Part shown: piece by piece, positions 1 through 51,864 of the stretch | How positions within the stretch are numbered: position 1 is the first letter of the stretch | How the letters are laid out: every line of letters begins with the position of its first letter | Source: Nitrospirota bacterium | GTDB lineage: Bacteria; Nitrospirota; Thermodesulfovibrionia; Thermodesulfovibrionales; JdFR-88 | Length of the DNA stretch: 52,349 nucleotides | Direction of reading: 5' to 3' | NCBI GenBank assembly: GCA_014874185.1 | Contig: JACWAF010000002.1 | Span: 1-52,349 of the forward strand | Position numbers and translations under genes: made by a program | Notes under the pieces: generated by a model | What the model was told of the DNA's origin: nothing | Databases searched by the model: none | The model's input: the letters and a program-made list of their open reading frames with translations, nothing else

Positions 1-222
1 GAGTCACCTTTCAGCGCGGTGAGGTTGAGGACGGATGCGGCGAAACGGTTTAAGAAGGTCCAAAACGCAACGGCAATGATCTGGAAACTTTTACAGGTCG
101 CCGAGAAAAGTTTCCGCACCTTAAAAGGATACTGGTTATTGTCTGATGTCTATAAAGGGAAAAAGTTTGTCGATGGGGTTGCAAAGGATGCCTCAAAGGC
201 ACTCGAAAGGATGGCCGCCTGA
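1..222 (+). CDS. IS256-family (mutator-type) transposase, C-terminal fragment
   Basis: The reading frame is open from the first base of the window and ends at a TGA at 220-222, giving 73 residues of a longer protein. The segment beginning ESPFSAVRLRT and continuing NATAMIWKLLQVAEKSF is the typical C-terminal end of mutator-type DDE transposases of the IS256 family, which move the element by cut-and-paste or copy-out transposition. The catalytic residues lie upstream of the window, so I cannot tell whether the gene is intact. It is transcribed towards the convergent jetD gene. Confidence 0.8.
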   Translation, partial: ESPFSAVRLRTDAAKRFKKVQNATAMIWKLLQVAEKSFRTLKGYWLLSDVYKGKKFVDGVAKDASKALERMAA

Positions 223-256
223 TGGCTTTTTACACACCTATTGACAAGAGCCCTTT
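1..256 (+). mobile_element. 3' end of an IS256-type insertion sequence
   Basis: The window opens inside a transposase gene. After its stop codon, a T-rich stretch and TACACACCTATTGACA (231-246) resemble the terminal repeat of IS256-group elements, which characteristically contains TGTGTAAA when read inwards. The exact end cannot be fixed because the other terminus lies outside the window. The element sits just beyond the 3' end of the Wadjet operon. Confidence 0.65.
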
Positions 257-342
257 ATGACAGAAAAATAAGTTCACAGTGGACAAATAGAAAAGGCCTA
301 GAATACGGATTGGGATTTCATTTTACGGCTACAGCTATGAAT

Positions 343-1524
343 TTATAATTCGAAAACCGATTTTAGTTCTGATTTTATTAAATCAAATCCGATCCTCTCC
401 TGTTCGAGCCTGACGGCAGGGCCTATGCGGTTAAACCGGAGGTCATCGAAAAGCGCATTCTCCTCCGCGCTGAGTCTGGTCAGGTCGCGATTCAAAGGTT
501 GTGGTTCACTTACCCATTGCGACTTATGGGCTATCAATGTTTTGCGGTCCATAAGGAATGATCTGGCATGAGGGAAATATGCCCGCAACTGATCAAGAAT
601 GGCAAAACCGTGCGTATCAATGTCGCCCCAATAGTGAATAGCACACCGGCGCAGCCATGCAGCCTGAACCAGCATCTCAAAGCCGTAGCCCGCGCCGAAA
701 ATGACCATGCTCTCCGGCACGCTGGGAAATGCCAGAAAGTTAATCTCGTTTTCAGTTATAAATACTCTGCTGGCCTTTAAATCTAGCAGGTTAAAAGCAT
801 CCTGATTGATGGCAATATCCTGGCCGACGCCCGATGGCTGCAAAACCAGTTTTGGGTCAAGAAGACGGAAACGGATTCGGAGCGGTTTTTCGAGAAATCC
901 ATACCGGCAGCAAAACTGGTCTATACCCTCGGCCTCAGCGTTGACAGAATCGGGAGGCAACGCCAAGTCCAGCAATTCCTTCAATATGGAAAGATTTCTT
1001 TCAATTAACTTTGTGTGAACGCCTGGAATATCTACTTGTCTCAGATATATTCCGGGGCGCGGATGGGCTTGCATCCAATTTACAATATCAAGCAGGAGTG
1101 GCCAGTCGGAAGCTAGAGCCAAGACTTTCAGCGGGTGTTTCATAATCCAAGGCAGCAATAATGGCTGGCGCTCTCTAGTAAGGGTTACGAGACCGGTGAA
1201 CTGTTTAGCATCCCGGATTTTACCTATTATATTAAGTGCATCCTCGATTGTATCTATCCATATCTCATACGGAATTGAATTGTTACCAATTAAATGATGC
1301 CTCAGATCGCGCATTACAACGCGGTAATGTACCCCTTGCCTCAGATTGGCAATCCAGGTCCGGACTTCATTAAAACGGACAGATAATTCAGCCGATGTAG
1401 GTTTTTTGAGAGTAAGGCGTCTGGGAAATAGTGCCTCACTGCCTGCCAGAGAGGCCAGGATCAGCCCCTTGTCCCATAATTTCTGTACCTGTGTTCGAAG
1501 GTCAGATGGCGTTGTCCATTCCAT
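343..1524 (-). CDS. jetD: Wadjet nuclease subunit JetD (DUF3322/DUF2220, Toprim-like)
   Basis: JetD is the DNA-cleaving subunit of Wadjet, related to the Spo11/TopoVI-A fold; it cuts circular plasmid DNA extruded by the JetABC SMC motor. The 393-residue protein has an N-terminal DUF3322-like part. Its DUF2220 Toprim-like part (about residues 255-315) shows a glutamate in VFITENEINF and an acidic pair in YWGDIDTHGF, the expected metal-binding positions. The ATG at 1524 lies 23 nt inside the end of jetC, so the two are translationally coupled. It is the last gene of the four-gene operon. Length and order match known type I systems, and I see no truncation. Confidence 0.88.
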   Translation of the reverse strand: MEWTTPSDLRTQVQKLWDKGLILASLAGSEALFPRRLTLKKPTSAELSVRFNEVRTWIANLRQGVHYRVVMRDLRHHLIGNNSIPYEIWIDTIEDALNIIGKIRDAKQFTGLVTLTRERQPLLLPWIMKHPLKVLALASDWPLLLDIVNWMQAHPRPGIYLRQVDIPGVHTKLIERNLSILKELLDLALPPDSVNAEAEGIDQFCCRYGFLEKPLRIRFRLLDPKLVLQPSGVGQDIAINQDAFNLLDLKASRVFITENEINFLAFPSVPESMVIFGAGYGFEMLVQAAWLRRCAIHYWGDIDTHGFAILDQLRAYFPHARSFLMDRKTLIAHKSQWVSEPQPLNRDLTRLSAEENALFDDLRFNRIGPAVRLEQERIGFDLIKSELKSVFEL

Positions 1525-37949: not shown

Positions 37950-38027
37950 ACTGCGGGGGCCGCTCCTGTTTTTTAATCCGTCATGCCGGACCCGATCCGG
38001 CATCTGTCTTTTCAATCCTTTTATCCC

Positions 38028-38096
38028 GGACTTGACCCGGAATCCAGTCGTAAGGTTTTTTTGTCATTCCGGCGAAAGCCGGAATCCAGCGGCTTT
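38028..38096 (+). repeat. 69-nt direct repeat, copy 1
   Basis: A perfect match to 38940-39008. It contains the palindrome ATTCCGGCGAAAGCCGGAAT and the word CCGGAATCCAG twice. The two copies flank the higBA module. The rest of the 342-nt gap holds the RelE/Phd promoter, a CCGGACCCGATCCGG palindrome and the hairpin at 38137-38167. Confidence 0.9.
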
Positions 38097-38225
38097 GGTT
38101 TTGATTTTTTTAGAGGCCGTGAGATAACGATCAAATCGGCGGAGTCCCTTTCAGGAGACTCCGCCGGAGGTGGAAGACTCCTGCCGGGGGAAAATTGAGC
38201 AAGCGTTGGGGGCTGTTTATTTTTT

Positions 38226-38540
38226 TTAACCAGCCATCTTTTTGGGACGACTGAAAGGTACAATCTTTTTCAACAGTTCCCTTTGCTTTTTATTTGCGTT
38301 GTAGAGGTCATACTCATTCTGAAGATTCAGCCAAAGCTCGGGTGATGTGCAAAAGAACCTGGCAAGTCTTATGGCCATATCCGGCGAAACCGCCCTTTTA
38401 GCGTTCAGGATTTCATTAATAGTCCTGAAAGTTGTTTTCAGCTTACTGGCAAGCTCTACCTGAGTGAGGCCAAGCGGGATTAAAAAATCTTCCTTAAGGA
38501 TTTCTCCCGGATGGGTTGGCTGCCGTTTAAGATCAAACAT
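38226..38540 (-). CDS. higA: HigA-family antitoxin
   Basis: The 104-residue antitoxin has an XRE-type helix-turn-helix (LTQVELASKLKTTFRTINEILNAKRAVSPDMAIRLARFF) and the family ending SPELWLNLQNEYDLYNANK. It should repress the operon and neutralise HigB, encoded 32 nt upstream in the usual toxin-first order. Confidence 0.92.
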   Translation of the reverse strand: MFDLKRQPTHPGEILKEDFLIPLGLTQVELASKLKTTFRTINEILNAKRAVSPDMAIRLARFFCTSPELWLNLQNEYDLYNANKKQRELLKKIVPFSRPKKMAG

Positions 38541-38572
38541 TGCTTTCTCCCTTTAAGGCTTCTTTATTCCTT

Positions 38573-38851
38573 TTAATGATAATCTGTTATTTCGACCTCG
38601 TAAGCGTCCCTTCCTTGAAACATGAAGACCACCCTGTACCGGTCATTTATCCGTATACTATATTTGCCTTTTTTGTCCCCTTTTAAAGCTTCAAGCCTGT
38701 TGCCGGGCGGGGCCGCCAATTCCATCAAGCAGGTTGCGGCATTCAGGTAATCGAGTTTTCGGACCGCCACTTTGAGAATGTCCTTGAATTTATTACTTGC
38801 CCCTGAAAGATAAAGCCTTTCGGTCTCTTTATCGGAAAAGGACTTTATCAT
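38573..38851 (-). CDS. higB: HigB-family mRNA interferase toxin
   Basis: The 92-residue RelE-fold toxin of the HigB/Killer type: IKSFSDKETERLYLSG at the start, RLEALKGDKKGKYSIRINDRYRVVFMF in the core, and the conserved ending VEITDYH. It cleaves mRNA on the ribosome. Complete, with its HigA partner downstream. Confidence 0.92.
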   Translation of the reverse strand: MIKSFSDKETERLYLSGASNKFKDILKVAVRKLDYLNAATCLMELAAPPGNRLEALKGDKKGKYSIRINDRYRVVFMFQGRDAYEVEITDYH

Positions 38852-38939
38852 AACAAATATTACATTAAGCGTTATAATATGTCAAAAAACGGATTTGGCA
38901 CGGGAAGCCAAAATATGCGGGCCTTTGTCCTGTCATTCA

Positions 38940-39008
38940 GGACTTGACCCGGAATCCAGTCGTAAGGTTTTTTTGTCATTCCGGCGAAAGCCGGAATCCA
39001 GCGGCTTT
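38940..39008 (+). repeat. 69-nt direct repeat, copy 2
   Basis: Identical to 38028-38096 at an offset of 912 nt and in the same orientation. It lies between higB and parB. Confidence 0.9.
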
Positions 39009-39086
39009 TGCTTTTTGAATGGGTTAGTCGGTGAGTCTTTTTCCGTGGGAGTCACCCGCCTACGGGTGACCCCTCCTTTACTCCCC

Positions 39087-40757: not shown

Positions 40758-41450
40758 ATGAAGAAGATACTGATCGTCGACGACCTGGAGCCCTTTATAA
40801 GACAGGAGCGCACACTCCTCGACCGCTCCGATTTCATGATATTCACGGCCAAATCGAGCGAGGAGGCCATTGAGCTTCACCGCAGGGAGAGGGTGGACCT
40901 GATCCTGGCGGACCTCAACATGCCGGGCATAAGCGGGGACCAGATGACCAGCGCCATACGGCTTGACCCGGACCTCCGTTACGTTTCGGTGATGATCATC
41001 TGCTCCCAGAAGAAGGCGGACATGGAAAAGTGCGCGGCCTGCGGCGCAAACGATTTCATCACGAGGCCCCTGGACGCGAAAAAGCTGATGGACAAGATAA
41101 GCAGACTTCTGGAAATTCCCCAGCGGCGGAACCTGCGCGTCCTCATCAAGGTGAGCGTAAAGGGCACCTTCGACTCGGCCCCCTTCTTTGGCACCACCCA
41201 CAATATAAGCGTGGCCGGTCTGCTGCTGGAAAGCGACAAGGTGCTTGCAAAAGGCGACCGCATCAACTGCGTCTTCTACCTGCCCGACTCCGAGCGCGTG
41301 AGCGCAGAGAGCGAGATCATCCGGGTGATACGCGGAGAAAAAACCTTCCAGTACGGGGTGAAATTCCTGAATGTGGGCGAACAGGACAGAGGCCTCATTG
41401 AGGCCTTCGTAAAAAAGGCTTCCTGGCGCCAAACAAGCATTCGGGATTGA
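40758..41450 (+). CDS. Response regulator with REC and PilZ domains
   Basis: The 230-residue protein has a receiver domain (KILIVDDLEP; phospho-acceptor in LILADLNMPG; conserved lysine region ITRPLDAKKL) and a C-terminal PilZ domain with the c-di-GMP signature RRNLR and NISVAG. It joins phosphorylation and c-di-GMP input, commonly for motility or surface behaviour. It is divergent from parA; the gap is only 80 nt. No kinase is adjacent. Confidence 0.9.
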   Translation: MKKILIVDDLEPFIRQERTLLDRSDFMIFTAKSSEEAIELHRRERVDLILADLNMPGISGDQMTSAIRLDPDLRYVSVMIICSQKKADMEKCAACGANDFITRPLDAKKLMDKISRLLEIPQRRNLRVLIKVSVKGTFDSAPFFGTTHNISVAGLLLESDKVLAKGDRINCVFYLPDSERVSAESEIIRVIRGEKTFQYGVKFLNVGEQDRGLIEAFVKKASWRQTSIRD

Positions 41451-41488
41451 CACTGAAAAGCCTTCTCCGGATGTGATATCATTTTAAA

Positions 41489-41716
41489 ATGAGGTCGTTT
41501 GTGGGTTTCTTCGCCTTCGCGCTGGTGATAATAGGCGTCCTGTTTGTCTTCTCCGGCAGGAAATTCCCGCAAATACCCGCGGACCCCGCTCACGCGGGCA
41601 TCACGAAAGAGGCAAACTGCATGAGCTGCCACGGCCCGGGCAGGACGGACCCCCTGAAGCCCACGCACCCCCCAAAGTTCTCTTGCTTCAAATGCCATAA
41701 GGCCAGGCGGGGCTGA
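41489..41716 (+). CDS. Small membrane-anchored diheme cytochrome c
   Basis: The 75-residue protein has an N-terminal membrane anchor (GFFAFALVIIGVLFVFSG) and two heme-binding motifs CMSCH and CFKCH, with histidines between them as possible axial ligands. It faces the periplasm and probably carries electrons. It is 38 nt downstream of the REC-PilZ gene. The partner reductase is not in the window. Confidence 0.85.
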   Translation: MRSFVGFFAFALVIIGVLFVFSGRKFPQIPADPAHAGITKEANCMSCHGPGRTDPLKPTHPPKFSCFKCHKARRG

Positions 41717-41743
41717 GCGGCCCCGCAAAGTCCGCCTTTCCCC

Positions 41744-41790
41744 TTGAAAAAACCTTCGGCAAATGGTTTAATATGTTAGTAAGCACTTAC
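41744..41790 (+). promoter_or_regulatory. Promoter with TetR-type operator ahead of the MFS gene
   Basis: TTGAAA (41744-41749) and TAATAT (41769-41774) are 19 nt apart. The palindrome GTAAG-CA-CTTAC (41779-41790) lies at the expected transcription start and resembles operators of TetR-family repressors of exporters. No repressor gene is adjacent. Confidence 0.5.
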
Positions 41791-41809
41791 ATAGAGAGGG
41801 CCCGGCCTG

Positions 41810-43078
41810 ATTCCTCGGCGGGGTAATTTTCAGACGGTCAAGAACATTCTGCGCGCGCTGCGCCATAGAAACTACCGCCTCTATTTCGGCGGGCAGGGCA
41901 TTTCCCTGGTTGGCACCTGGATGGAGCGCATAGCCATGAGCTGGCTGGTTTACCGGTTAAGCCACTCGGTGCTCCTCCTGGGCGCAGTCGGATTTGCGGG
42001 CCAGATACCCACGTTTCTGCTCACCTCTTTGGGCGGGGCGATTGCCGACAGGGGGAACCGCTACCGGATGATCATCGGCCTGCAGGCGCTGGCGATGGTA
42101 CAGGCCTTCATAGTGGCCTATCTGGTGCTTAGCGGAAAGGTGCAGATCTGGCACCTGTTTGTCCTCCGCATAATCCTGGGCTCAATAAACGCGTTCGACA
42201 TCCCCATCCGACAGTCCTTCATCGTGGACATGATAGAGGACAGGGAGGACCTGGGCAACGCAATCGCCCTCAATTCCTCCCTGGTGAACGGGGCAAGGCT
42301 CCTTGGCCCCTCGATAGCAGGGGTGCTCATCGCGGCCGTTGGCGAGGGGATGTGCTTCCTCCTGAACGGGATAAGCTTCATCCCGGTCATCGCGGCCCTT
42401 CTGGCCATGCGCGTGCGTCCGCACGTGAAGAAGCGCCGCGAGACAAACGTGCTCCACGAGATGAGGGAGGGCTTCTCTTACGCGTTCGGGTTTCCGCCCA
42501 TCCGGATGGTCCTTCTGCTTCTGGCCCTGGTAAGCCTGGTGGGGATGCCCTACATGGTGCTGATGCCGGTCTTTGCCAGTCAGGTGCTGCACGGCGGCCC
42601 CAATACCCTGGGTTTTCTGATGGGGGCTTCCGGCTTGGGGGCCTTGGCGGGCGCCATCTACCTGGCCTCCAGGAAGAGCGTGCTGGGGCTTGGAAGGGCC
42701 ATCGTCTGGTCTGCCTCGCTCTTCGGGACGGGGCTGGTCTTCTTCTCGCTGTCAAACATGCTTACCGCCTCCATGGCGATGATGGTGGTTACAGGCTTTG
42801 GCATGATGGTGCAGATGGCCGCAAGCAACACGCTTCTTCAGACCGTGGTGGAAGACAAGATGCGGGGCCGGATCATGAGCTTCTTCACGATGGCATTCAT
42901 GGGGATGGCCCCGTTCGGAAGCCTTCTGGCCGGGGCGATGGCAGACAGGATAGGGGCCCCGCATACCGTCCTCATAGGCGGCGTGTGCTCCATCCTGGGG
43001 GCGCTGGTATTCGCCAACCGGCTCTCTGTCCTGCGCGAAGGCCTCCGGCCCATTTACGAGAGCAAGGGGATAATCTAA
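41810..43078 (+). CDS. MFS exporter (MFS_3/EntS-like), non-canonical start
   Basis: The MFS exporter has about 422 residues and twelve helices. The coding frame clearly extends upstream of the first ATG (41921): NFQTVKNILRALRHRNYRLYF then GGQGISLVGTWMERIAM is a normal MFS N-terminus. No ATG, GTG or TTG occurs in this frame before a stop at 41792; ATT at 41810, or CTG at 41807, lies 7-9 nt after GAGAGGG. I therefore place the start at the ATT. Members export siderophores or drugs. A TetR-type operator overlaps the promoter. Confidence 0.8.
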   Translation: MPRRGNFQTVKNILRALRHRNYRLYFGGQGISLVGTWMERIAMSWLVYRLSHSVLLLGAVGFAGQIPTFLLTSLGGAIADRGNRYRMIIGLQALAMVQAFIVAYLVLSGKVQIWHLFVLRIILGSINAFDIPIRQSFIVDMIEDREDLGNAIALNSSLVNGARLLGPSIAGVLIAAVGEGMCFLLNGISFIPVIAALLAMRVRPHVKKRRETNVLHEMREGFSYAFGFPPIRMVLLLLALVSLVGMPYMVLMPVFASQVLHGGPNTLGFLMGASGLGALAGAIYLASRKSVLGLGRAIVWSASLFGTGLVFFSLSNMLTASMAMMVVTGFGMMVQMAASNTLLQTVVEDKMRGRIMSFFTMAFMGMAPFGSLLAGAMADRIGAPHTVLIGGVCSILGALVFANRLSVLREGLRPIYESKGII

Positions 43079-43102
43079 AAGGACCCGCCGGCATCCCGGA
43101 TG

Positions 43103-43873
43103 CTACTTCATTCCTGTCAAAATCAGTACGGGATATGAAAAGTGGATCTCGTTGCCCTTAAGATATGCGTCAACCCCAAGGCTGTCTTTTCCTATGTCAT
43201 CCCTTAAGAGCTTCCTGATCCTGTCATCATCGCCGGGGTTTGGAAATGATGCCTTTATCTGCGCCTCCAGTTCCATCTCCAACCGGTGAAATTGCGTCCT
43301 GATATCGCGCAGGCCCAGCTTCTCAGCCATTTCAAGGGACCTGGCCGGCGTCAGGGTACGGGTATGGGACGGGTCACGAAGTTTTTCCATCCGGTTGAAG
43401 GCCTCCATTTTATCATGTGGTACGGCGAGGTCGGCCACAACGATCGTCCCGCCCGGAGCGCAGACGCGCCCCATCTCCCCGAAGACGGCCTCCGGGTGGG
43501 CAAAGTGGTGGAATGAAAACCTCGACACCACAATCGAAAAGGAGGAATCCGGGTAGGGCAGGGAAAGGACGTCCCCCAACTGCCAGGTCATATTAGAAAG
43601 GTTTTTCTTCTGCTGGAGCCCCCTGGCCTGGTCTATCATGGCCGGGGTGATGTCGATGCCGGTAACATGTTTGGCCGCCCCGGCAAAGGCGCAGGCCAGC
43701 AACCCCGGCCCGCACGCTACATCCAGAACTGTATCACTGCCTGTCACGCCCGCGGCGGCCAGGACCTTGAGCGCTATCTCCTGTCCCTTTCCGGCCATTT
43801 TCTCTTTAAACGGGACCGCCTGCCTTGTGAATTGATCGATAATGGTTTTGTTATGAGCTTGTTGTCTCTTCAT
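43103..43873 (-). CDS. Class I SAM-dependent methyltransferase
   Basis: The 256-residue methyltransferase has motif I VLDVACGPGLLACAFA, an acidic residue after the second strand (VTGIDITPAMI), and FSFHHFAHPEAVFGEMGRVCAPGGTIVVADL. It resembles the UbiE/Methyltransf_11 group; the acceptor is unknown. Convergent with the MFS gene; 20 nt downstream of the RNase gene. Confidence 0.88.
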   Translation of the reverse strand: MKRQQAHNKTIIDQFTRQAVPFKEKMAGKGQEIALKVLAAAGVTGSDTVLDVACGPGLLACAFAGAAKHVTGIDITPAMIDQARGLQQKKNLSNMTWQLGDVLSLPYPDSSFSIVVSRFSFHHFAHPEAVFGEMGRVCAPGGTIVVADLAVPHDKMEAFNRMEKLRDPSHTRTLTPARSLEMAEKLGLRDIRTQFHRLEMELEAQIKASFPNPGDDDRIRKLLRDDIGKDSLGVDAYLKGNEIHFSYPVLILTGMK

Positions 43874-43893
43874 TTAACAATGGGCGATAACAA

Positions 43894-45414
43894 CTAGGAA
43901 GCGGCTATCTCCTTCTCTTCGGGTGCCTTCTTTGGCTCCTCCGGGGGGGCGTTTTCTATATGGAGCACATGCTGGCCGGGGGCCATGGCCGGGTCTGAGA
44001 TTATATTTATCCTCACCTTGAACTCTTTTTCCATGGCCGCCAGCTCGGCCCTCTTCGTGTTCGTTATCAGGTTTGCGCTTGCCACGGGCAGATGGCAGGT
44101 TATCGCCTTTATCCCTCCCCTCGATGCCTTCATATGGATATCCCTGAAGGCGGAGAGCGCGACCATCTCCTCGGTCTTCACCACCCCGGAGCCCTCGCAG
44201 TCCGGGCACTTCCTGTATGCCGATTCGAAGTAGGCGGTGCGCATCCGCTCCCGCGTCATCTCCAGCATCCCGAAGCGGGATATGCCGGTGATGTCCGCGT
44301 GGGCCTTATCGGCAAGCAGGGCGGTCTTCAATCGCCGCTCCACCTCGCGGCGGTTCTTCGTGATCTCCATGTCGATGAAATCTATCACGATAAGCCCCCC
44401 GATGTCCCTCAGCCTGAGCTGCCGCGCTATTTCGTCCGCGGCCTCCAGGTTGGTCTTGAGGGCGGTCTGCTCTATGTTCTTTTCCTTCCTGCTCCTTCCG
44501 GAATTGACGTCTATGGCGGTAAGGGCCTCCGTCCTGTCGAATACAAGGTGCCCCTTCGAGGGCAGGTGGACGTAGCGGTCGTTTATCTTCGATATCTGGT
44601 CTTCGATGTTATGCTGGTCGAAGATGGGCCTTTTCCCCCTGTAAAGGGTGATATTTATCTTCCGCCAGGGCAGGGTGCGCCGCAGGAATTCCCTTACCTT
44701 GCGGGCCGTCCCCTGGTCGTCCGCCAGTATCTCCTCCACGTCCGAAGTGAGGTAATCCCTGATAGTCCTTACGGCTATGTCCTGCTCCTTGTAGATCAGG
44801 GCCGGGGCCGGGGCCTCTTTCGCCTCTTTCTGTATCCTGTCCCAGAGCTTCGTGAGATACTTCAAATCGTTTGCCATGTCTTCAGCCGTCTTCTCGATCC
44901 CGGCCGTCCGCAGGATGAAGCCCATCTTCTGGGGGAGCTTCAGGGTTTTAAGTATTTCCTTCAGGCGCACCCGTTCCTCCGGGTCGTCTATCTTCCTCGA
45001 TATCCCCACCCTGTCCTGCCCCGGCATCATCACCAGGTACCTGCCGGGCAGTGATATGTAGGTTGTAAGGCTTGCGCCCTTGGTGTCCCTCTCGTCCCGC
45101 TCCACCTGCACTATGAATTCCTGCCCCTTGGAGAATATCTCCTGAATCCTCTTCTTCTTCTCCCTGCCGGCCGGGCCGAAGTACTCCGGCGCTATCTCGC
45201 GCACCTGCAGGAAGCCCTGTTTCTTCTGGCCGAAGTCCACGAAGACGGCCTGCAGGGCGGGCTCCACCCTTGTTATAAGGCCCTTGTAGATGTTGCCCCT
45301 CAGGTGCTCCCTGGCGGATGTCTCAACATAGAAGTCCACCAGGTGGTCCCCTTCAACTATGGCCACCCGCTTTTCTTCCGGATATTTCGCGTTAATCAGT
45401 ATCTTTTTCTTCAT
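43894..45414 (-). CDS. rng: Ribonuclease E/G family protein
   Basis: The 506-residue endoribonuclease has an N-terminal S1 domain (GNIYKGLITRVEPALQAVFVDFGQKKQGFLQV), the catalytic DNase I-like region with ALTAIDVNSGR and GGLIVIDFIDME (two metal-binding aspartates), and a zinc-link CPDCEGSG. The size is RNase G rather than the long RNase E scaffold. It processes rRNA and starts mRNA decay. Confidence 0.92.
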   Translation of the reverse strand: MKKKILINAKYPEEKRVAIVEGDHLVDFYVETSAREHLRGNIYKGLITRVEPALQAVFVDFGQKKQGFLQVREIAPEYFGPAGREKKKRIQEIFSKGQEFIVQVERDERDTKGASLTTYISLPGRYLVMMPGQDRVGISRKIDDPEERVRLKEILKTLKLPQKMGFILRTAGIEKTAEDMANDLKYLTKLWDRIQKEAKEAPAPALIYKEQDIAVRTIRDYLTSDVEEILADDQGTARKVREFLRRTLPWRKINITLYRGKRPIFDQHNIEDQISKINDRYVHLPSKGHLVFDRTEALTAIDVNSGRSRKEKNIEQTALKTNLEAADEIARQLRLRDIGGLIVIDFIDMEITKNRREVERRLKTALLADKAHADITGISRFGMLEMTRERMRTAYFESAYRKCPDCEGSGVVKTEEMVALSAFRDIHMKASRGGIKAITCHLPVASANLITNTKRAELAAMEKEFKVRINIISDPAMAPGQHVLHIENAPPEEPKKAPEEKEIAAS

Positions 45415-45465
45415 ATCTATCTAGAATACCATTCCCAGCGGGAAATGTTGAGTTTATCCGGGTAA

Positions 45466-46236
45466 TTACGGGCCGAAGGTCAGTTGATAGGCCGCGTACA
45501 TCCGGTATCTGACCGGGCCGCTAAGGTCTCGACCGGCGGAAAAAAGGATATGATGGATTCCGGTAATATTCACTATCGCGCCCGCGTTGAACCCGGTTGA
45601 GCTTGTTTCGTCCCTCGCCGAAGCCGTCTGGTTGAAGACCTCCGCCCCCAGGGTAAGCGTCCTTGTTATGTCGCGCTGCACCTCAAGCCCGGTGAACCAG
45701 TAATTTTTGTTGTCAGCGCCGGGGTGTATCCAGTACCCCCCGCCCCCGTATGCCAGCCAGTGCCCCCAGGCCTTCTGAAGCCATATGGGCAGAAAGAGGT
45801 TGGGATGGCCCTCGCCAAGCCCGCGTGAACGTGATCCCGTTGGCAGTGTCAGCAGGGGGAACGTGCCCGCCTGAAACCCTGTCCCCACGTCATTATAGAA
45901 ACGGTATTTAACCCCCGTTTCCATGTCTCCAGGCCCGTATGCCGCGGGGCCGCCCGCAGGGTGCGCGTAGACCATCGGCACTATCAGGTGGATCTGGGTG
46001 TTTGGAAGCGCGCCGTAGTTGATCTCCACGTGCGGCGCGGTGGTGTCGAAGCCCGCACCCTTCACGTTCTCGTACTGCGAGGCCAGGTAGACCTCCCAGT
46101 GGTGAAGCTCCACGGGCTCCGGGTCGTCCGTGAGAAAGGGCGGGCCCGCCCACGCCCTTGCCGCAATCAGGGCCAGGGCGCAGCCGATAATGACCGTCCA
46201 TAAGGCCTTCCGGCCATCGGGGATTCCGGGTTTCAT
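45466..46236 (-). CDS. Outer-membrane beta-barrel protein, PF13557-like
   Basis: The 256-residue protein has a signal peptide (WTVIIGCALALIAARAWAG) followed by GPPFLTDDPEPVELHHWEVYLAS, the same LTDD-type mature start as the transporter at 10090-10899. Beta-strands end in an amphipathic YQLTFGP. It is expected in the outer membrane; the substrate is unknown. The ATG at 46236 is chosen for its signal peptide and AAAGGG upstream; the open frame to 46374 has no support. Confidence 0.78.
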   Translation of the reverse strand: MKPGIPDGRKALWTVIIGCALALIAARAWAGPPFLTDDPEPVELHHWEVYLASQYENVKGAGFDTTAPHVEINYGALPNTQIHLIVPMVYAHPAGGPAAYGPGDMETGVKYRFYNDVGTGFQAGTFPLLTLPTGSRSRGLGEGHPNLFLPIWLQKAWGHWLAYGGGGYWIHPGADNKNYWFTGLEVQRDITRTLTLGAEVFNQTASARDETSSTGFNAGAIVNITGIHHILFSAGRDLSGPVRYRMYAAYQLTFGP

Positions 46237-46330
46237 AAACACCCTTTCATCATTAATTGAAGAGTATATGATTTCGCAAGAGGGTGGAATTGTCAATTCC
46301 TTTTCGAAACAGCGCGGAGTAGTAGATTGG

Positions 46331-46612
46331 CTATTTGCCAGCCTCGTGCAATTCCTCATCCACCCGCTCTGCAAGGAACAGCTTCAGAAGGGACTGATAG
46401 GGTATGTCCCTTTTATTGGCAAGGGTTTTCAGGTGCTCGAGCAGGGCTTCGGGCAGGCGTATCGAGATGGTCCTTGTGGAAGGCTTCAGATTCGGGAAAG
46501 CAGCCTTCTTCGCCTTTCTGTAATCGACGTACCCGGTAGAATCGTGAGTTGCCCAGAATTCCCGTTCATCTTCTTCTGTCTTAAATTTCGGGATTTTTTT
46601 CAATTTCATCAT
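46331..46612 (-). CDS. brnA: BrnA-family antitoxin (toxin partner decayed)
   Basis: The antitoxin has about 93 residues: an N-terminal toxin-wrapping part (KIPKFKTEEDEREFWATHDST) and a ribbon-helix-helix DNA-binding end (STRTISIRLPEALLEHLKTLANKRDIPYQSLLKLFLAERV). The ATG at 46612 follows GAGAGG by 6 nt. In this frame the codons just upstream encode the tail of a BrnT toxin, so the start at 46636 belongs to that remnant. The toxin is no longer present, leaving an orphan antitoxin. Confidence 0.82.
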   Translation of the reverse strand: MMKLKKIPKFKTEEDEREFWATHDSTGYVDYRKAKKAAFPNLKPSTRTISIRLPEALLEHLKTLANKRDIPYQSLLKLFLAERVDEELHEAGK

Positions 46613-46618
46613 GGATGG

Positions 46619-46675
46619 CCTCTCTTTTTTGTTCATGTCCCGCGCGGAGATTACCCTGATTTTATTTCTGCCGGA
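46619..46675 (-). pseudogene. Remnant of a BrnT toxin gene (last 19 codons)
   Basis: Between a TGA at 46676-46678 and brnA the frame reads SGRNKIRVISARDMNKKER, matching the conserved C-terminal end of BrnT toxins (IRxISARxMxKKER). It lies in the expected place directly before brnA. The rest of the toxin gene is missing; a repeat and the end of a higA gene take its place. Confidence 0.65.
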
Positions 46676-46686
46676 TCACGCGCTCT

Positions 46687-47037
46687 TCAACATTTTTGAA
46701 TTCCATTCTCCCTCTCCCCCCGGGAGAGGGCCAGGGTGAGGGAATTCAGCACTTTTACCTCTTTTTCAAGCCTCGAATCCAGTTTGTCCTTTTCCATCTC
46801 CAGATCATACCGCGACTGAAGGTTCAGCCAGAAGCGTTCCGAGAGGCCGAAATAGCGGGAAAGCCTCAGGGCCGTATCGGCCGTGACCGCCCGCTTGCCC
46901 TGCACGATCTCGTTTATCCGCCGCGGCGGCACGCTTATGTCCCTGGCCAGCCTGTACTGGCTGATTTTGAGAGGCTTTAAAAATTCCTCTAGCAGGATTT
47001 CTCCCGAATGTATCGGGGGTGTTGGTTTGGGTTTCAT
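46687..47037 (-). CDS. HigA-family antitoxin with repeat-derived tail
   Basis: The 116-residue antitoxin has a HigA-type helix-turn-helix (ISQYRLARDISVPPRRINEIVQGKRAVTADTALRLSRYFG) and the family end ERFWLNLQSRYDLEMEK. The last 20 residues (NSLTLALSRGERENGIQKC) are translated from an intergenic repeat (46703-46746) and replace the normal end. Only a possible shred of its HigB toxin remains upstream. Confidence 0.82.
   Translation of the reverse strand: MKPKPTPPIHSGEILLEEFLKPLKISQYRLARDISVPPRRINEIVQGKRAVTADTALRLSRYFGLSERFWLNLQSRYDLEMEKDKLDSRLEKEVKVLNSLTLALSRGERENGIQKC
46703..46746. repeat. Intergenic palindromic repeat inside the higA 3' end
   Basis: ATTCTCCCTCTCCC and GGGAGAGGGCCAGGGTGAGGGAATT form the widespread CCCTCACCCTGGCCCTCTCCC-type element. 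It is read through by the HigA frame and ends close to the BrnT remnant. Confidence 0.8.
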
Positions 47038-47049
47038 TTTCTACTTCTA

Positions 47050-47070
47050 ATGATAATTGATTTCTTTTCT
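47050..47070 (-). pseudogene. Possible tail of a HigB toxin gene
   Basis: On the minus strand the codons just before higA read RKEINYH and a TAG stop (47048-47050 complement), similar to the EI-x-YH ending of HigB toxins (EITDYH in the intact copy at 38573). Upstream codons no longer resemble HigB because the RT module begins there. The stretch is very short, so the call is weak. Confidence 0.35.
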
Positions 47071-47085
47071 TAATTCTATTCGCGT

Positions 47086-47094
47086 TGGTATAAT
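47086..47094 (+). promoter_or_regulatory. Extended -10 promoter of the reverse transcriptase gene
   Basis: TGGTATAAT carries a perfect -10 with TGn extension; the transcript would start near 47101, about 19 nt before the ATG at 47120. Confidence 0.6.
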
Positions 47095-47119
47095 TAAAAA
47101 ATTTTCATTTAGGTCCATT

Positions 47120-49213
47120 ATGGCTAACGATTACCAAAGAATGTGTTCTCTCGATAATTTGAACCGTGCTTACCGCTGGGTTCAATCTAATCCTGATGCA
47201 TTATATAAAAAATTTTTTAGAGATTCTTACAGTGCCTATGCTGCCTCTTCACAATACAATCTAAATCGGCTTAGAAAACACTTGCTTAGATATGCTTTTG
47301 AAGGGACACATGCATCTAAATTATATTTTCCTAAACCATCAGGAATATTAAGGCCCTATACGTTATTGGCAGTTGATGATCAGATCGTTTATCAAGCGTG
47401 CGTCAATATTATAGCTGAGAAATTAAAATCACAAGTACAGGCCCGATACTATAAAAATATATTTGGACATCTTTATGCCGGTAAATCATCAAAATTCTTC
47501 TACTATAAATGGCAGGACGGCTACCGTTTATACTCACGAGCGGTCGTTGAAAATATAAAAAAGGGCTTTGATTATGTCGCTAATTTTGATTTAACTTCTT
47601 TTTATGATTCGATAGATCATTCTGTCTTACAGCATTTTCTTATTGAAATTGATATAGATAAAGAATTAATCGATTTTCTTTTTAGATTACTTAAACTTTG
47701 GACTTCCTCTACATGGACCAATCGATCCAATATTATTTATATCGAGCATGGAATACCTCAAGGCCCTTTGTCATCAGGATTGCTGTCCGAAGTGATACTG
47801 AAACATATCGATGATAAAGGTATACGTTTTCCTGAGAAAAACAAAAAGGTAGTTAAATATTTGCGATATGTAGATGATATTAAATTATTTGCAAAGAATG
47901 AAAAACTTTTACGTCAAAGACTGATTTCTCTTGATTTGGCGGCGAAGGAAATAGGTTTATTCCCCCAAAGTTTAAAGATAAATGTCAGAAAAGTTACTAA
48001 TCCAATCGAAGAAATCAAAACGGTAAGCGGTGTTGCAGAATTGGTTAGCAATCCAGCTATTAATCAAAACAAAATGTATAATCAAATTCTTGATCTTTCT
48101 AAAGGTGGTAAAATCCGAAATGAGGATCAAACTAAATTTAAATATCTTTTAAGCCGAACTATACCTAATTACAAGTTAAATAACAGAATAATTCAAATAT
48201 TGAAAAATCATCCATCTCTTTCTACTCATATAGCCTATTATTTTGGTAAATATAAAAAATTGCCACCTAAGTGTGCAGAAAAAATCGTTCACTTTATAAG
48301 AAATGAAGATATTTTTCATTCAGTACAGGCGGATATTTTATTTGCCACTATAGAGAATATGCCAGAGCCATATAAGGCTTACTGTTTAGGGTATTGTAAC
48401 GAGCGATTGTTTCCTACAGCAAGATTCACTGCGCAACCACAACCCTCATTAAAGGCAGCCTTACTTGCTTGGATTTTAAAAAATGACAACATTACTTATC
48501 AAAAATTAAAAATTTTTATCACGGAAGAGCTTGATTGGTGGGTAATAAAAGATGTGCTTAAATATATTCGCGATGATCAATATGGGATTGCAAGTTATAA
48601 TACCTTTTTAAATGAACAAATAGAATCTAAATATGCTGATATCGCAAGAATGGCGGCTTTAAAGATTATAAATGAAAATCTTAATGTTAATTCTAAATCC
48701 GCAAACGAAGCAGCAAAATTACTCCTGTTTTCAGCTGGAAAAATTAGGAAAATAGGAAAACCTGAAAGCCTTGTGAGCAAAGTCCTCTGTTATGTACTTA
48801 AATGTAATTTACCGCCCTTTAGCTGGGATCGTTTATTTGGGCAGAATCATAAAAAAGCTGAGTACATTGCTTTTAATGTAAAAAAGGATTTTGAATCAAA
48901 CATAAATAGTTGCTTGCTCACTTTAGATAGTTTGTGCGATTTATTATTTGAAAAATTATTTAATAAATTTCTTCCACAGAATACTTATGGAAATTATGGC
49001 AGCATGCTTCTTAATCCAACCATTAACCAAAATTTACCTAATACTTGTTCAGCTTTTCAAGAATTACATAAATTAAGATTATTATCAATTACCGCCCACC
49101 CAAGATCAAGATCAGGTAATTCAACCAGACATTTAAAATACGGAGATTTTTACAATATTAAACCTCACTTAATAAGCGCTTTTAATGAAATTGCTCAAAA
49201 TATCACAGTTTAG
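47120..49213 (+). CDS. AbiA-like defence reverse transcriptase (RT plus C-terminal HEPN-type end)
   Basis: The 697-residue protein starts at ATG 47120 behind an extended -10 promoter; an earlier ATG (47057) lies upstream of that promoter. The RT half (about 60-330) has motif A NFDLTSFYDSIDH (Asp157), motif B GIPQGPLSSG (211-220) and motif C YVDD (250-253). A long helical middle follows. The end has a HEPN-like RX6H motif (RLLSITAH, about Arg653-His660) followed by a basic tail. RT plus HEPN is the AbiA abortive-infection architecture. No msr/msd or maturase features are seen. The gene is strikingly AT-rich and uses codons unlike its neighbours, so it was acquired horizontally. It probably polymerises DNA during phage attack and arrests the host; this is inference. 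Confidence 0.72.
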   Translation: MANDYQRMCSLDNLNRAYRWVQSNPDALYKKFFRDSYSAYAASSQYNLNRLRKHLLRYAFEGTHASKLYFPKPSGILRPYTLLAVDDQIVYQACVNIIAEKLKSQVQARYYKNIFGHLYAGKSSKFFYYKWQDGYRLYSRAVVENIKKGFDYVANFDLTSFYDSIDHSVLQHFLIEIDIDKELIDFLFRLLKLWTSSTWTNRSNIIYIEHGIPQGPLSSGLLSEVILKHIDDKGIRFPEKNKKVVKYLRYVDDIKLFAKNEKLLRQRLISLDLAAKEIGLFPQSLKINVRKVTNPIEEIKTVSGVAELVSNPAINQNKMYNQILDLSKGGKIRNEDQTKFKYLLSRTIPNYKLNNRIIQILKNHPSLSTHIAYYFGKYKKLPPKCAEKIVHFIRNEDIFHSVQADILFATIENMPEPYKAYCLGYCNERLFPTARFTAQPQPSLKAALLAWILKNDNITYQKLKIFITEELDWWVIKDVLKYIRDDQYGIASYNTFLNEQIESKYADIARMAALKIINENLNVNSKSANEAAKLLLFSAGKIRKIGKPESLVSKVLCYVLKCNLPPFSWDRLFGQNHKKAEYIAFNVKKDFESNINSCLLTLDSLCDLLFEKLFNKFLPQNTYGNYGSMLLNPTINQNLPNTCSAFQELHKLRLLSITAHPRSRSGNSTRHLKYGDFYNIKPHLISAFNEIAQNITV

Positions 49214-49261
49214 TGCTTTTCTCTAGGGCGGCTCTCCTCTGCCATATAGACGGATCTGGAA

Positions 49262-49277
49262 TGTTCCACGTGGAACA
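49262..49277. promoter_or_regulatory. parS centromere site 1
   Basis: TGTTCCACGTGGAACA, a perfect 16-bp palindrome identical to the parS form of pseudomonads and myxobacteria. The palindrome extends perfectly to 24 bp (49258-49281). Confidence 0.92.
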
Positions 49278-49302
49278 TTCCATCTCCTAAAATGGAAAAA
49301 AT

Positions 49303-49360
49303 TTTTCGGGGTCATAGGGGCGGAGCCCCTATCCAATTAAAAGGCCCAGAAGGGCCTTGG
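49303..49360. repeat. REP-like hairpin element
   Basis: ATAGGGGC-GGA-GCCCCTAT forms a stem, followed by a second small hairpin AAGGCCCAGAAGGGCCTT. The first part resembles the element at about 34004-34045 (TTTTTGGGGGCATGGGGGCGCTAGCCCCTAT). Confidence 0.6.
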
Positions 49361-49433
49361 CTCCCGTTCCGATATTTGGGCGGGTTAGATGAAAATCTCT
49401 TCCTTATTGCCTTTAAGCAGGAGATAGCCCAGC

Positions 49434-50792
49434 CTACTCCATTGTTCCACGTGGAACATCTATCTCGTAGGCCTTTATCTTCCGGTGCAGGTTGGAGCGC
49501 TCAACGCCCAAAAGCTCCGCCGTCTTGGAGATGTTCCAGTTGTTCTCGGTCAGCTTCCTGCGCAGGAAATCCCTCTCGAAGGCGTCCCGCGCCTCCTTCA
49601 GGGTTTCGTACCCGAAATAGTCCTCCGCCCCGGCCTGAACGCTCGCGAAGATCAGACCCTTGCCGTCTATCACATCCCCCGGGCTCATTATCACAAGCCG
49701 CTCTATCGCGTTCCTAAGCTCCCGCACGTTTCCAGGCCAGTTGTGCTCGGAGAGCCGCTTCAGGGCCTCTTTGGTGAGCTTCTTTGCCGGGCGGCCGTAC
49801 TCAGAGGCAAGCTGACGCAAAAAGTACTCGGCCAGCTCCGGGATGTCCTCCCTGTGCGCCCGGAGGGGCGGGACGACAAGAGGGATGACGTTCAGCCTGT
49901 AGTAGAGGTCCTCGCGGAAGCTGCCCTGCTTCACCTCCCTGGCAAGGTCCTTGTTTGTGGCCGCGATCAGGCGCACATCCACGCGCAGGGTCTTGCTGCC
50001 CCCAACCCGCTGAAACTCCTGCGTTTCGATGGCGCGCAAAACCTTGGCCTGGGTGGGGAGGCTCATGTCCCCCACCTCGTCCAGAAAGAGACTGCCCCTG
50101 TCTGCAAGCTCGAATTTGCCCTTTCTGGCCTCCTGAGCGCCGGTGAAGGCGCCCTTCTCGTGCCCGAACAGTTCGCTCTCTATAAGCTCCTGGGGGATGG
50201 CCGCGCAGTTAAGCTCTATAAAGGGCATCAGGGCGCGCGGGCTAAGCTCGTGCAGCAGGCGGGCCACAAGCTCCTTGCCGCTTCCGGACTCCCCGGTTAT
50301 AAGCACCTTGCTTGCGCTCTTTGCCGCCATCTCCACCTGGGCTTTAAGCTCGCGCATCGTCTGCGACCCCCCGGCCATCGCGAGTCTGCCCCGAAGGGTC
50401 TCCTTCAGGGACTTGTTCTCGCTCTCAAGCTGGTACTTCTCCAGCGCGCGCGCGGTGCTGAGGAGCACCCGGTCCATGGAGAGGGGCTTTTCAAGGAAAT
50501 CATAGGCGCCCATGCGGGTGGCCTTCACGGCAAGCTCTATGGTGCCGTGGCCGGTTATCATTATCACGGGCAGTTCGGTGTGGGCGGCCTTTATCTTCTG
50601 AAGGCAGTCGGTGCCGTCCATCCCCGGAAGCCAGATGTCCAGTATGACAAGCTCCGGGGGCTTCTTTGCAATGATTTCAAGGGCCTCCTCCCCGGTGGAG
50701 GCAAGCTCCACCTCGTAGCCCTCGTCTTTCAGGATGTCGGCCAGGCTCTCCCTGATGTTCTCTTCATCGTCTACAATCAGGATTCGCGGCAT
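49434..50792 (-). CDS. Sigma-54-dependent response regulator (NtrX/NtrC-like)
   Basis: The 452-residue activator has a receiver domain (RILIVDDEEN; acceptor in LVILDIWLPG; IEL...FLEKPLSMD), an AAA+ sigma-54 activator domain with Walker A GESGSGKE, GAFTGA loop and Walker B LFLDEVGDM, and a Fis-type helix-turn-helix (WNISKTAELLGVERSNLHRKIKAYEI). It opens sigma-54 promoters when phosphorylated. The last codons (DVPRGTME) are encoded by a parS site. No histidine kinase is adjacent in the window. Confidence 0.93.
   Translation of the reverse strand: MPRILIVDDEENIRESLADILKDEGYEVELASTGEEALEIIAKKPPELVILDIWLPGMDGTDCLQKIKAAHTELPVIMITGHGTIELAVKATRMGAYDFLEKPLSMDRVLLSTARALEKYQLESENKSLKETLRGRLAMAGGSQTMRELKAQVEMAAKSASKVLITGESGSGKELVARLLHELSPRALMPFIELNCAAIPQELIESELFGHEKGAFTGAQEARKGKFELADRGSLFLDEVGDMSLPTQAKVLRAIETQEFQRVGGSKTLRVDVRLIAATNKDLAREVKQGSFREDLYYRLNVIPLVVPPLRAHREDIPELAEYFLRQLASEYGRPAKKLTKEALKRLSEHNWPGNVRELRNAIERLVIMSPGDVIDGKGLIFASVQAGAEDYFGYETLKEARDAFERDFLRRKLTENNWNISKTAELLGVERSNLHRKIKAYEIDVPRGTME
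49443..49458. promoter_or_regulatory. parS centromere site 2, inside the NtrX-like gene
   Basis: A second exact TGTTCCACGTGGAACA, 181 nt from the first, located in the last codons of the regulator gene, where it encodes DVPRGT. Both sites lie about 9 kb from parAB. Confidence 0.92.
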
Positions 50793-50996
50793 TTTATTCC
50801 TTTACGTTTTCGAAATGAGTCGCGTTTTCATTTTTAACCCAACTTTAAAGGTACACCGCTTCTACTATTTACGCTCTTTTTGAGAATACCCCTTTATAAT
50901 TGAAAAGGTCAAAATTATGCGTTTCCTTCTTTTCTTCCCAAACGAATTATTCATAAATGTTTGCCCGCGCATATCCGCGCATGTAATAAATGAAAA

Positions 50997-51756: not shown

Positions 51757-51831
51757 CTATTTTCCCCTTCTGCAGTGCGACAGGCTCTCCCTGATGTTCT
51801 CTTCATCGTCTACGATCAGTATTCGCGGCAT
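51757..51831 (-). pseudogene. Duplicated 5' fragment of the NtrX-like gene
   Basis: The frame reads MPRILIVDDEENIRESL, identical to the start of the regulator at 50792, then SHCRRGK and a TAG. At the DNA level 51781-51832 matches 50742-50793 with very few changes, and similarity fades into the upstream region. It sits directly before the DUF3800 gene on the same strand and may supply its translation signals. Confidence 0.85.
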
Positions 51832-51864
51832 ATTAGGCCCTGAATTTGATAATGAGTTTCGTTT

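What the first reader, a model, noticed from the sequence alone, without database searches (positions are those of the whole stretch)
47120..49213. AT-rich AbiA-like reverse transcriptase with a C-terminal HEPN motif
A full set of RT motifs with YVDD, a long helical body and an RX6H motif at the end match abortive-infection RTs of the AbiA type, but it stands alone between parS sites and antitoxin relics. There is little room for a template RNA, so template-free or protein-primed synthesis is likely. It is a good candidate for an uncharacterised phage-defence branch.
Basis: partly seen in the sequence, partly recalled or inferred. Interest (0 to 1): 0.7.

Follow-up and report, generated by a model that had tools for sequence, protein, structure and literature searches.

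The report
UG19 defence reverse transcriptase with HEPN
This is a horizontally acquired bacterial reverse transcriptase of the catalogued but, as far as I could find, untested defence group UG19, whose tail is an unannotated HEPN (ribonuclease-type) domain with a near-invariant active-site motif, and whose relatives often sit inside restriction-modification operons.

Summary
Window 47120-49213 (+) is an intact 697-aa, AT-rich ORF (32% GC, GC3 25%) with a full RT core (YVDD, residues 250-253), a helical-repeat body and a C-terminal R-X6-H (R653, H660). PADLOC assigns it, full length, to RT_UG19 (E 5e-158). It is not a group II intron RT (UG19 monophyletic, 100/99), and it is filed under UG19 rather than AbiA, although the RT + solenoid + HEPN layout is AbiA's.

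In 68 aligned UG19 proteins from many phyla, R653 (67/68) and H660 (68/68) are kept while the tail otherwise diverges. AlphaFold gives a four-helix tail (pLDDT 96) whose 14 best structural matches are HEPN-fold proteins; Pfam annotates none of this.

In 10 of 79 UG19 loci the gene directly follows hsdS of a type I restriction-modification operon, the layout of the anticodon nuclease PrrC. The window copy is solo: its genome has no HsdS or N6-methylase match.

Most likely it makes untemplated DNA (class 1 architecture, no room for a cis RNA in several loci) and uses the HEPN tail to dimerise and probably to cleave RNA. The closest precedent, AbiA, does not need its R/H motif, so the RNase step remains unproven.

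The parts
47120..49213 (+). UG19 reverse transcriptase-HEPN gene, 697 aa
   Evidence: RT_UG19 E 4.7e-158 over the full profile; model pLDDT 92.9
47120..48019 (+). RT-like polymerase domain (residues 1-300); YVDD at residues 250-253 (47867-47878)
   Evidence: RVT_1 hit 71-283; structure matches group II, G2L4, AbiA, DRT4 RTs
48062..48799 (+). alpha-helical repeat (HEAT-like) solenoid, residues 315-560
   Evidence: secondary structure of the model; structural alignments of AbiA, AbiK, Abi-P2, DRT4, UG15 extend through it; HEAT_2 Pfam hit in 3 of 68 relatives
48824..49210 (+). C-terminal HEPN-fold domain (residues 569-697)
   Evidence: isolated model pLDDT 95.9; the best 14 VIA-align matches are HEPN-fold proteins
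49076..49099 (+). R-x6-H motif, R653 to H660 (H650 just upstream)
   Evidence: 67/68 and 68/68 conserved
49262..49277 (.). parS site TGTTCCACGTGGAACA (context, not part of the system)
   Evidence: exact match, 0.03 expected
49443..49458 (.). second parS site (context)
46687..47037 (-). HigA-like HTH antitoxin-type gene, divergent neighbour (context)
   Evidence: HTH_3 E 9e-10
46331..46636 (-). CopG antitoxin-type gene (context)
   Evidence: PF12441 E 5e-33

Best explanation
The gene encodes a single-protein anti-phage defence enzyme of UG RT group UG19, architecture class 1 (RT plus HEAT-like solenoid), with a C-terminal HEPN domain. Shown: intact gene, UG19 assignment, intact RT active site, solenoid, HEPN fold (predicted structure), near-invariant R-X6-H, foreign base composition, no type I R-M found in this genome. 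Inferred: on phage infection the RT/solenoid cleft makes DNA without a nucleic-acid template, as the studied class 1 enzymes do; the HEPN tail dimerises the protein, as in AbiA, and is itself probably a metal-independent RNase that stops translation when the enzyme is triggered. In relatives that lie within hsdM-S-R operons the same protein probably acts as a second line behind the restriction system; this copy works without one.
For: UG19 assignment: 525.7 bits against 165.5 for the next group and 79 for the general RT model; UG19 monophyletic 100/99, apart from group II RTs. Class 1 architecture: structural alignments run through the solenoid for AbiA (2..535, Z 20.7), DRT4 (12..515, Z 18.2), AbiK (16..516, Z 17.3), Abi-P2 (12..537, Z 17.2), but stop at 338-378 for class 2 DRT9 and DRT2; class definitions in PMC12489045 and PMC13174585. 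HEPN: 2hsb Z 9.3, 3.2 A over 119 residues, then HepT toxins and sacsin, against Z 6.6 for the best unrelated bundle. Motif: R653 67/68, H660 68/68, H650 96%, while the solenoid has 1 column of 246 at 90% or more. No cis RNA: UG19 is packed between co-directional neighbours in L043 (-7/-3 bp), L037 (-10/-3), L097 (15/14) and others; no Rfam family at its gathering score near the gene. Defence context: hsdS directly upstream in 10 of 79 loci.
Against: In L. lactis AbiA, the closest solved architecture, the HEPN domain showed no RNase activity and R581A/H588A mutants still defended (PMC11077055). The residue after R653, polar in many active HEPNs, is usually L or Y here (N in 14 of 68). No conserved tyrosine matches the AbiK/Abi-P2 priming loop. 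Foldseek E-values for the HEPN model alone are above 1. No UG19 member was found to have been tested in the papers that could be searched.
Confidence: 0.5

Rival explanations
1. Same protein, but the HEPN is only structural, as reported for AbiA: it dimerises the polymerase, and defence rests wholly on untemplated DNA synthesis.
For: AbiA: HEPN deletion abolishes dimerisation and polymerase activity, no RNase seen, R/H mutants still protect (PMC11077055). Residue after R653 usually non-polar.
Against: R653 and H660 are kept in 67/68 and 68/68 relatives across phyla while most of the domain drifts; a purely structural domain would not obviously need both.
Confidence: 0.3
2. PrrC-like guard: UG19 is held silent by a type I restriction complex and released when a phage blocks that complex; stand-alone copies such as this one have found another trigger.
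For: UG19 directly follows hsdS in 10 of 79 loci, often with hsdR or hsdM after it; roughly 80 hsdS genes in 50 host genomes makes chance adjacency well under one locus (my estimate). PrrC lies in the hsdMSR operon and its nuclease is a HEPN domain (PMC3710099; PMC12707154). Fic genes directly downstream in L037, L043, L066 recall the R-M/HEPN/Doc loci.
Against: The window's genome has no HsdS or N6-methylase match, and most UG19 loci show no type I R-M within 8 kb. Operon position shows co-transmission, not physical control.
Confidence: 0.3
3. Class 2-like: the RT copies a non-coding RNA encoded in the flanks or elsewhere.
For: 220 nt downstream of the window gene is unassigned; class 2 systems use cis RNAs (PMC13174585).
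Against: Several relatives leave no flanking space; structure is class 1; the downstream space here holds two parS sites; no Rfam match at gathering score.
Confidence: 0.08
4. Ordinary retroelement RT (group II intron or relative) misread as a defence gene.
For: NCBIfam group_II_RT_mat 76.7 bits; RT-domain structure closest to group II RTs.
Against: 76.7 bits is far below that model's cut-off of 300; tree separates UG19 from group II at 100/99; solenoid and HEPN instead of maturase parts.
Confidence: 0.01

Closest known systems
UG19 group of Unknown Group/Abi reverse transcriptases (PADLOC RT_UG19, PDLC03756)
   Same: Full-length profile match, same architecture and motif in relatives
   Different: Nothing in membership; this copy stands outside any R-M operon. 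The HEPN tail is not annotated by Pfam in any of 68 members
AbiA of Lactococcus (PDB 8oz7)
   Same: RT + helical domain + C-terminal HEPN with R-X6-H; AbiA motif RNSNPVSH resembles RNxLPxSHPY of one UG19 branch
   Different: Different RT group by profile; UG19 solenoid about 246 residues against about 170 in AbiA; no conserved tyrosine seen in the linker after the RT domain, whereas AbiA primes from Tyr298
DRT4/UG15, AbiK, Abi-P2 (class 1 polymerases)
   Same: RT plus alpha solenoid in the same arrangement
   Different: No HEPN domain
UG21 RTs
   Same: Next-best UG profile for this protein
   Different: About 615 aa, end in the helical repeats without the HEPN tail
PrrC / EcoprrI
   Same: HEPN-bearing gene placed inside a type I R-M operon (in UG19 relatives)
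   Different: PrrC has an ABC ATPase instead of an RT; the window copy has no R-M partner

Membership tests
UG19 RT group | Best full-length profile match among UG/Abi groups | tested here: met
   525.7 bits, profile 2-560/562; next UG21 165.5
UG19 RT group | Monophyly with other UG19 RT domains, outside group II RTs | tested here: met
   100/99 support; retron, AbiA and class 2 sequences were not in the tree
UG/Abi class 1 | RT fused to HEAT-like alpha repeats | tested here: met
   model and structural alignments; HEAT_2 hit in 3 relatives
UG/Abi class 1 | Template-independent DNA synthesis | not testable with these tools
   needs enzyme assay
AbiA | RT + helical + C-terminal HEPN with R-X4-6-H | tested here: met
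AbiA | AbiA-group RT/HEPN_AbiA_CTD sequence | tested here: inconclusive
HEPN superfamily | Four-helix HEPN fold | tested here: met
   14 best VIA-align rows are HEPN-fold proteins, Z 6.8-9.3
HEPN superfamily (catalytic) | R-X4-6-H at the end of helix 3 | tested here: met
   R653-X6-H660; 67/68 and 68/68; position in the model
HEPN superfamily (catalytic) | Polar residue directly after R (not universal) | tested here: not met
   L654 in the window; N in 14 of 68 relatives
HEPN superfamily (catalytic) | RNase activity | not testable with these tools
   needs assay
PrrC-like R-M guard | Gene inside a type I R-M operon | tested here: not met
   not for this copy: no HsdS/N6_Mtase match in its genome; met for at least 10 relatives
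Group II intron RT | Score above the maturase cut-off, placement among group II RTs | tested here: not met
   76.7 of 300 bits; tree

The most novel reading that the evidence does not exclude
UG19 is a two-warhead guard of restriction: an RT-HEPN fusion that has repeatedly entered type I restriction operons at the position of prrC, senses loss of restriction, and responds with both untemplated DNA synthesis and RNA cleavage; stand-alone copies like this one are the same weapon with an internal trigger.
Probability: 0.2. Interest if true: 0.75.

Novelty: new member of a known kind. Interest (0 to 1): 0.45.

Why it matters
It turns an anonymous UG group into a testable system. AbiA left open whether the HEPN of RT-HEPN proteins ever acts as a nuclease; UG19, with a near-invariant motif in 68 diverse members, is a better place to ask. 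The operon link to type I restriction suggests that reverse transcriptases can serve as back-up for restriction, as PrrC does.

Tried and rejected
Single-sequence scans of viral contigs and genome contigs and a PLSDB plasmid search gave nothing; two phage records match only the RT core at 25-28%. A profile of the HEPN region found no PDB sequence, so the fold claim rests on predicted structure. Foldseek with the HEPN model alone gave no E below 1; the VIA-align ranking was needed. The HEPN_AbiA_CTD search in the phylum rang nowhere, including controls, so it proves nothing. A Drt3a search for tree rows found none, and the Drt4 rows lacked the [YF][ACVM]DD motif my script used, so they are not in the tree. 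AbiK-like priming: the window model has only residues 23-26 between the second and third helices, with no conserved tyrosine there; Y29 and Y37 are conserved but lie in the following helix, so protein priming was not adopted. The idea that ntrC-parA is a defence hot spot was dropped: relatives carry ordinary genes there. The Mestre 2022 classification paper is not held, so whether it already notes HEPN or R-M operons for UG19 is unchecked.

Full report
What is there. The ORF at 47120-49213 (+) encodes 697 aa without interruption. It is 32% GC with GC3 25%, between genes of about 55% GC; the neighbouring ntrC-like gene has GC3 81%. The composition points to horizontal acquisition. The finding's coordinates are right.

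Which RT it is. PADLOC's RT_UG19 model covers the protein end to end (E 4.7e-158, 525.7 bits); the next group, UG21, scores 165.5 and the general RT model 79. NCBIfam's group II maturase model gives 76.7 bits against a cut-off of 300. In a tree of RT domains, 17 UG19 rows form one clade at 100/99, apart from five group II RTs and an RT-Cas1. Class 2, retron and AbiA sequences were not in that tree.

Relatives. A profile scan of one genome per species kept 79 loci from many phyla, among them Pseudomonadota, Acidobacteriota, Bacteroidota, Bacillota, Planctomycetota and Verrucomicrobiota. The nearest are 52-56% identical (Thiobacillus L023, Desulfuromonas L024, L025, L026). In the window's own phylum 15 of 395 sampled genomes match the UG19 model at E 1e-40, but several of those are UG21 by their best model and one is an RT-Cas1.

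Domains. AlphaFold on a 68-sequence alignment gives mean pLDDT 92.9: an RT domain (1-300), a helical-repeat domain (315-560) and a four-helix tail (569-697). Structural alignments to AbiA, AbiK, Abi-P2, DRT4 and UG15 continue through the helical domain to residues 515-602, whereas those to DRT9 and DRT2 end at 335-378. By the published definitions (class 1: RT plus HEAT-like repeats; class 2: RT alone; PMC12489045) this is a class 1 layout. The related UG21 proteins are about 615 aa and lack the tail.

HEPN. The tail alone models at pLDDT 95.9. Foldseek E-values are above 1, although many of its hits are HEPN proteins. VIA-align, which only re-ranks Foldseek hits, puts HEPN-fold proteins in the first 14 rows, led by 2hsb (Z 9.3, 3.2 A over 119 residues); the best unrelated helical bundle has Z 6.6. 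Pfam's listing shows no HEPN family for the window protein or among the 25 commonest hits of 68 members. The R-X6-H sits at the end of the third long helix, as in HEPN RNases. R653 is kept in 67 of 68 and H660 in 68 of 68; H650, G627, W569, D603, D607 and P640 are the only other columns of the tail at 90% or more, and the solenoid has just one such column. The exception, L012, has an arginine one residue along. A bare R-X4-6-H would be weak evidence, since 41% of control stretches hold one.

What the HEPN does. Rx4-6H residues are catalytic in RNase L, RloC and PrrC (PMC3710099). In AbiA, however, the same layout gave no RNase activity, the R/H mutants still protected against phage, and the domain was needed for dimerisation (PMC11077055). 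The strong conservation in UG19 favours a catalytic role; the non-polar residue after R in most members speaks against it. I put RNase action somewhat above structural-only.

Template and primer. In several relatives UG19 is packed between co-directional genes on both sides (L043 -7/-3 bp, L037 -10/-3, L097 15/14), which leaves no room for a flanking RNA. No Rfam family reaches its gathering score around the window gene. Together with the class 1 architecture this favours untemplated synthesis, as in the class 1 systems studied so far (PMC13174585). Protein priming is a different matter: AbiK and Abi-P2 prime from a tyrosine in a loop between the second and third fingers helices (PMC9508834); in the window model that loop is four residues long and has no conserved tyrosine.

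Restriction link. Clustering of neighbour genes and a recount with HMMs built from them show hsdS directly upstream of UG19 (-57 to 18 bp) in 10 of 79 loci, with hsdM and hsdR around it in most; Pfam confirms Methylase_S in 8 neighbours and N6_Mtase in 6, and one HsdS matches solved S subunits. In L023 the preceding frame ends in RAERMRQSIFVKSFSG, like the tail of the hsdS in L024, and hsdM starts 4 bp downstream. On the UG19 tree the type I-linked rows need at least four changes of state. About 160 HsdS domain matches, roughly 80 genes, lie in 50 host genomes, so chance adjacency would be far below one locus (my estimate). AbiA-type HEPN-RTs were already noted in R-M operons, and PrrC is the model for a HEPN nuclease held by a type I enzyme (PMC3710099; PMC12707154). 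For UG19 I found no such report in the papers that could be searched. The window's genome has no HsdS or N6_Mtase match, with controls ringing, so this copy is unlikely to work through a type I system of its own genome.

Locus. In related genomes ntrC lies next to a response regulator, parS and parA-parB, sometimes with a few ordinary genes between; the window has about 8 kb of other genes, UG19 among them, between the response regulator and ntrC. The nearest same-family copy is interrupted by an IS66-like element with an 8-bp target duplication (the IS66 naming is from my knowledge of its TnpB).

Verdict. A sound observation, an interpretation right in kind but not in family. The gene is a new member of a catalogued, uncharacterised group; the well-conserved HEPN and the restriction link make it worth testing.

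Noticed in passing
window 50742-50796 and 51781-51835: The 5' end of the ntrC-like gene is duplicated (55 nt, 95% identical) on the far side of a DUF3800 gene, with a further similar 20-nt stretch, as if that gene had been inserted with a duplication.
   Followed up: partly
window 40758-49434: Relatives have ntrC, parS, a response regulator, parA and parB close together; here about 8 kb (MFS, methyltransferase, RNase G-like, UG19 and others) lie between the response regulator and ntrC.
   Followed up: partly
L006 and L002 (G005 contigs C53 and C14): The same-family UG19 gene is split by an IS66-like insertion after codon ~270, with the 8-bp repeat GTTTCTCT on both sides.
   Followed up: yes
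window 38016-38102 and 38928-39014: Two 87-nt direct repeats (93% identical) flank a HigB-HigA-like toxin-antitoxin pair (38226-38851).
   Followed up: no
L037, L043, L066: A Fic-family gene directly follows UG19 (-3 to 4 bp) in three loci, recalling the published R-M/HEPN/Doc loci.
   Followed up: partly
L030, L033, L050: A GIY-YIG-type (T5orf172/MUG113) protein gene abuts or overlaps the start of UG19 in alphaproteobacterial loci.
   Followed up: no
L050: UG19 is cut into two frames by one in-frame stop.
   Followed up: no
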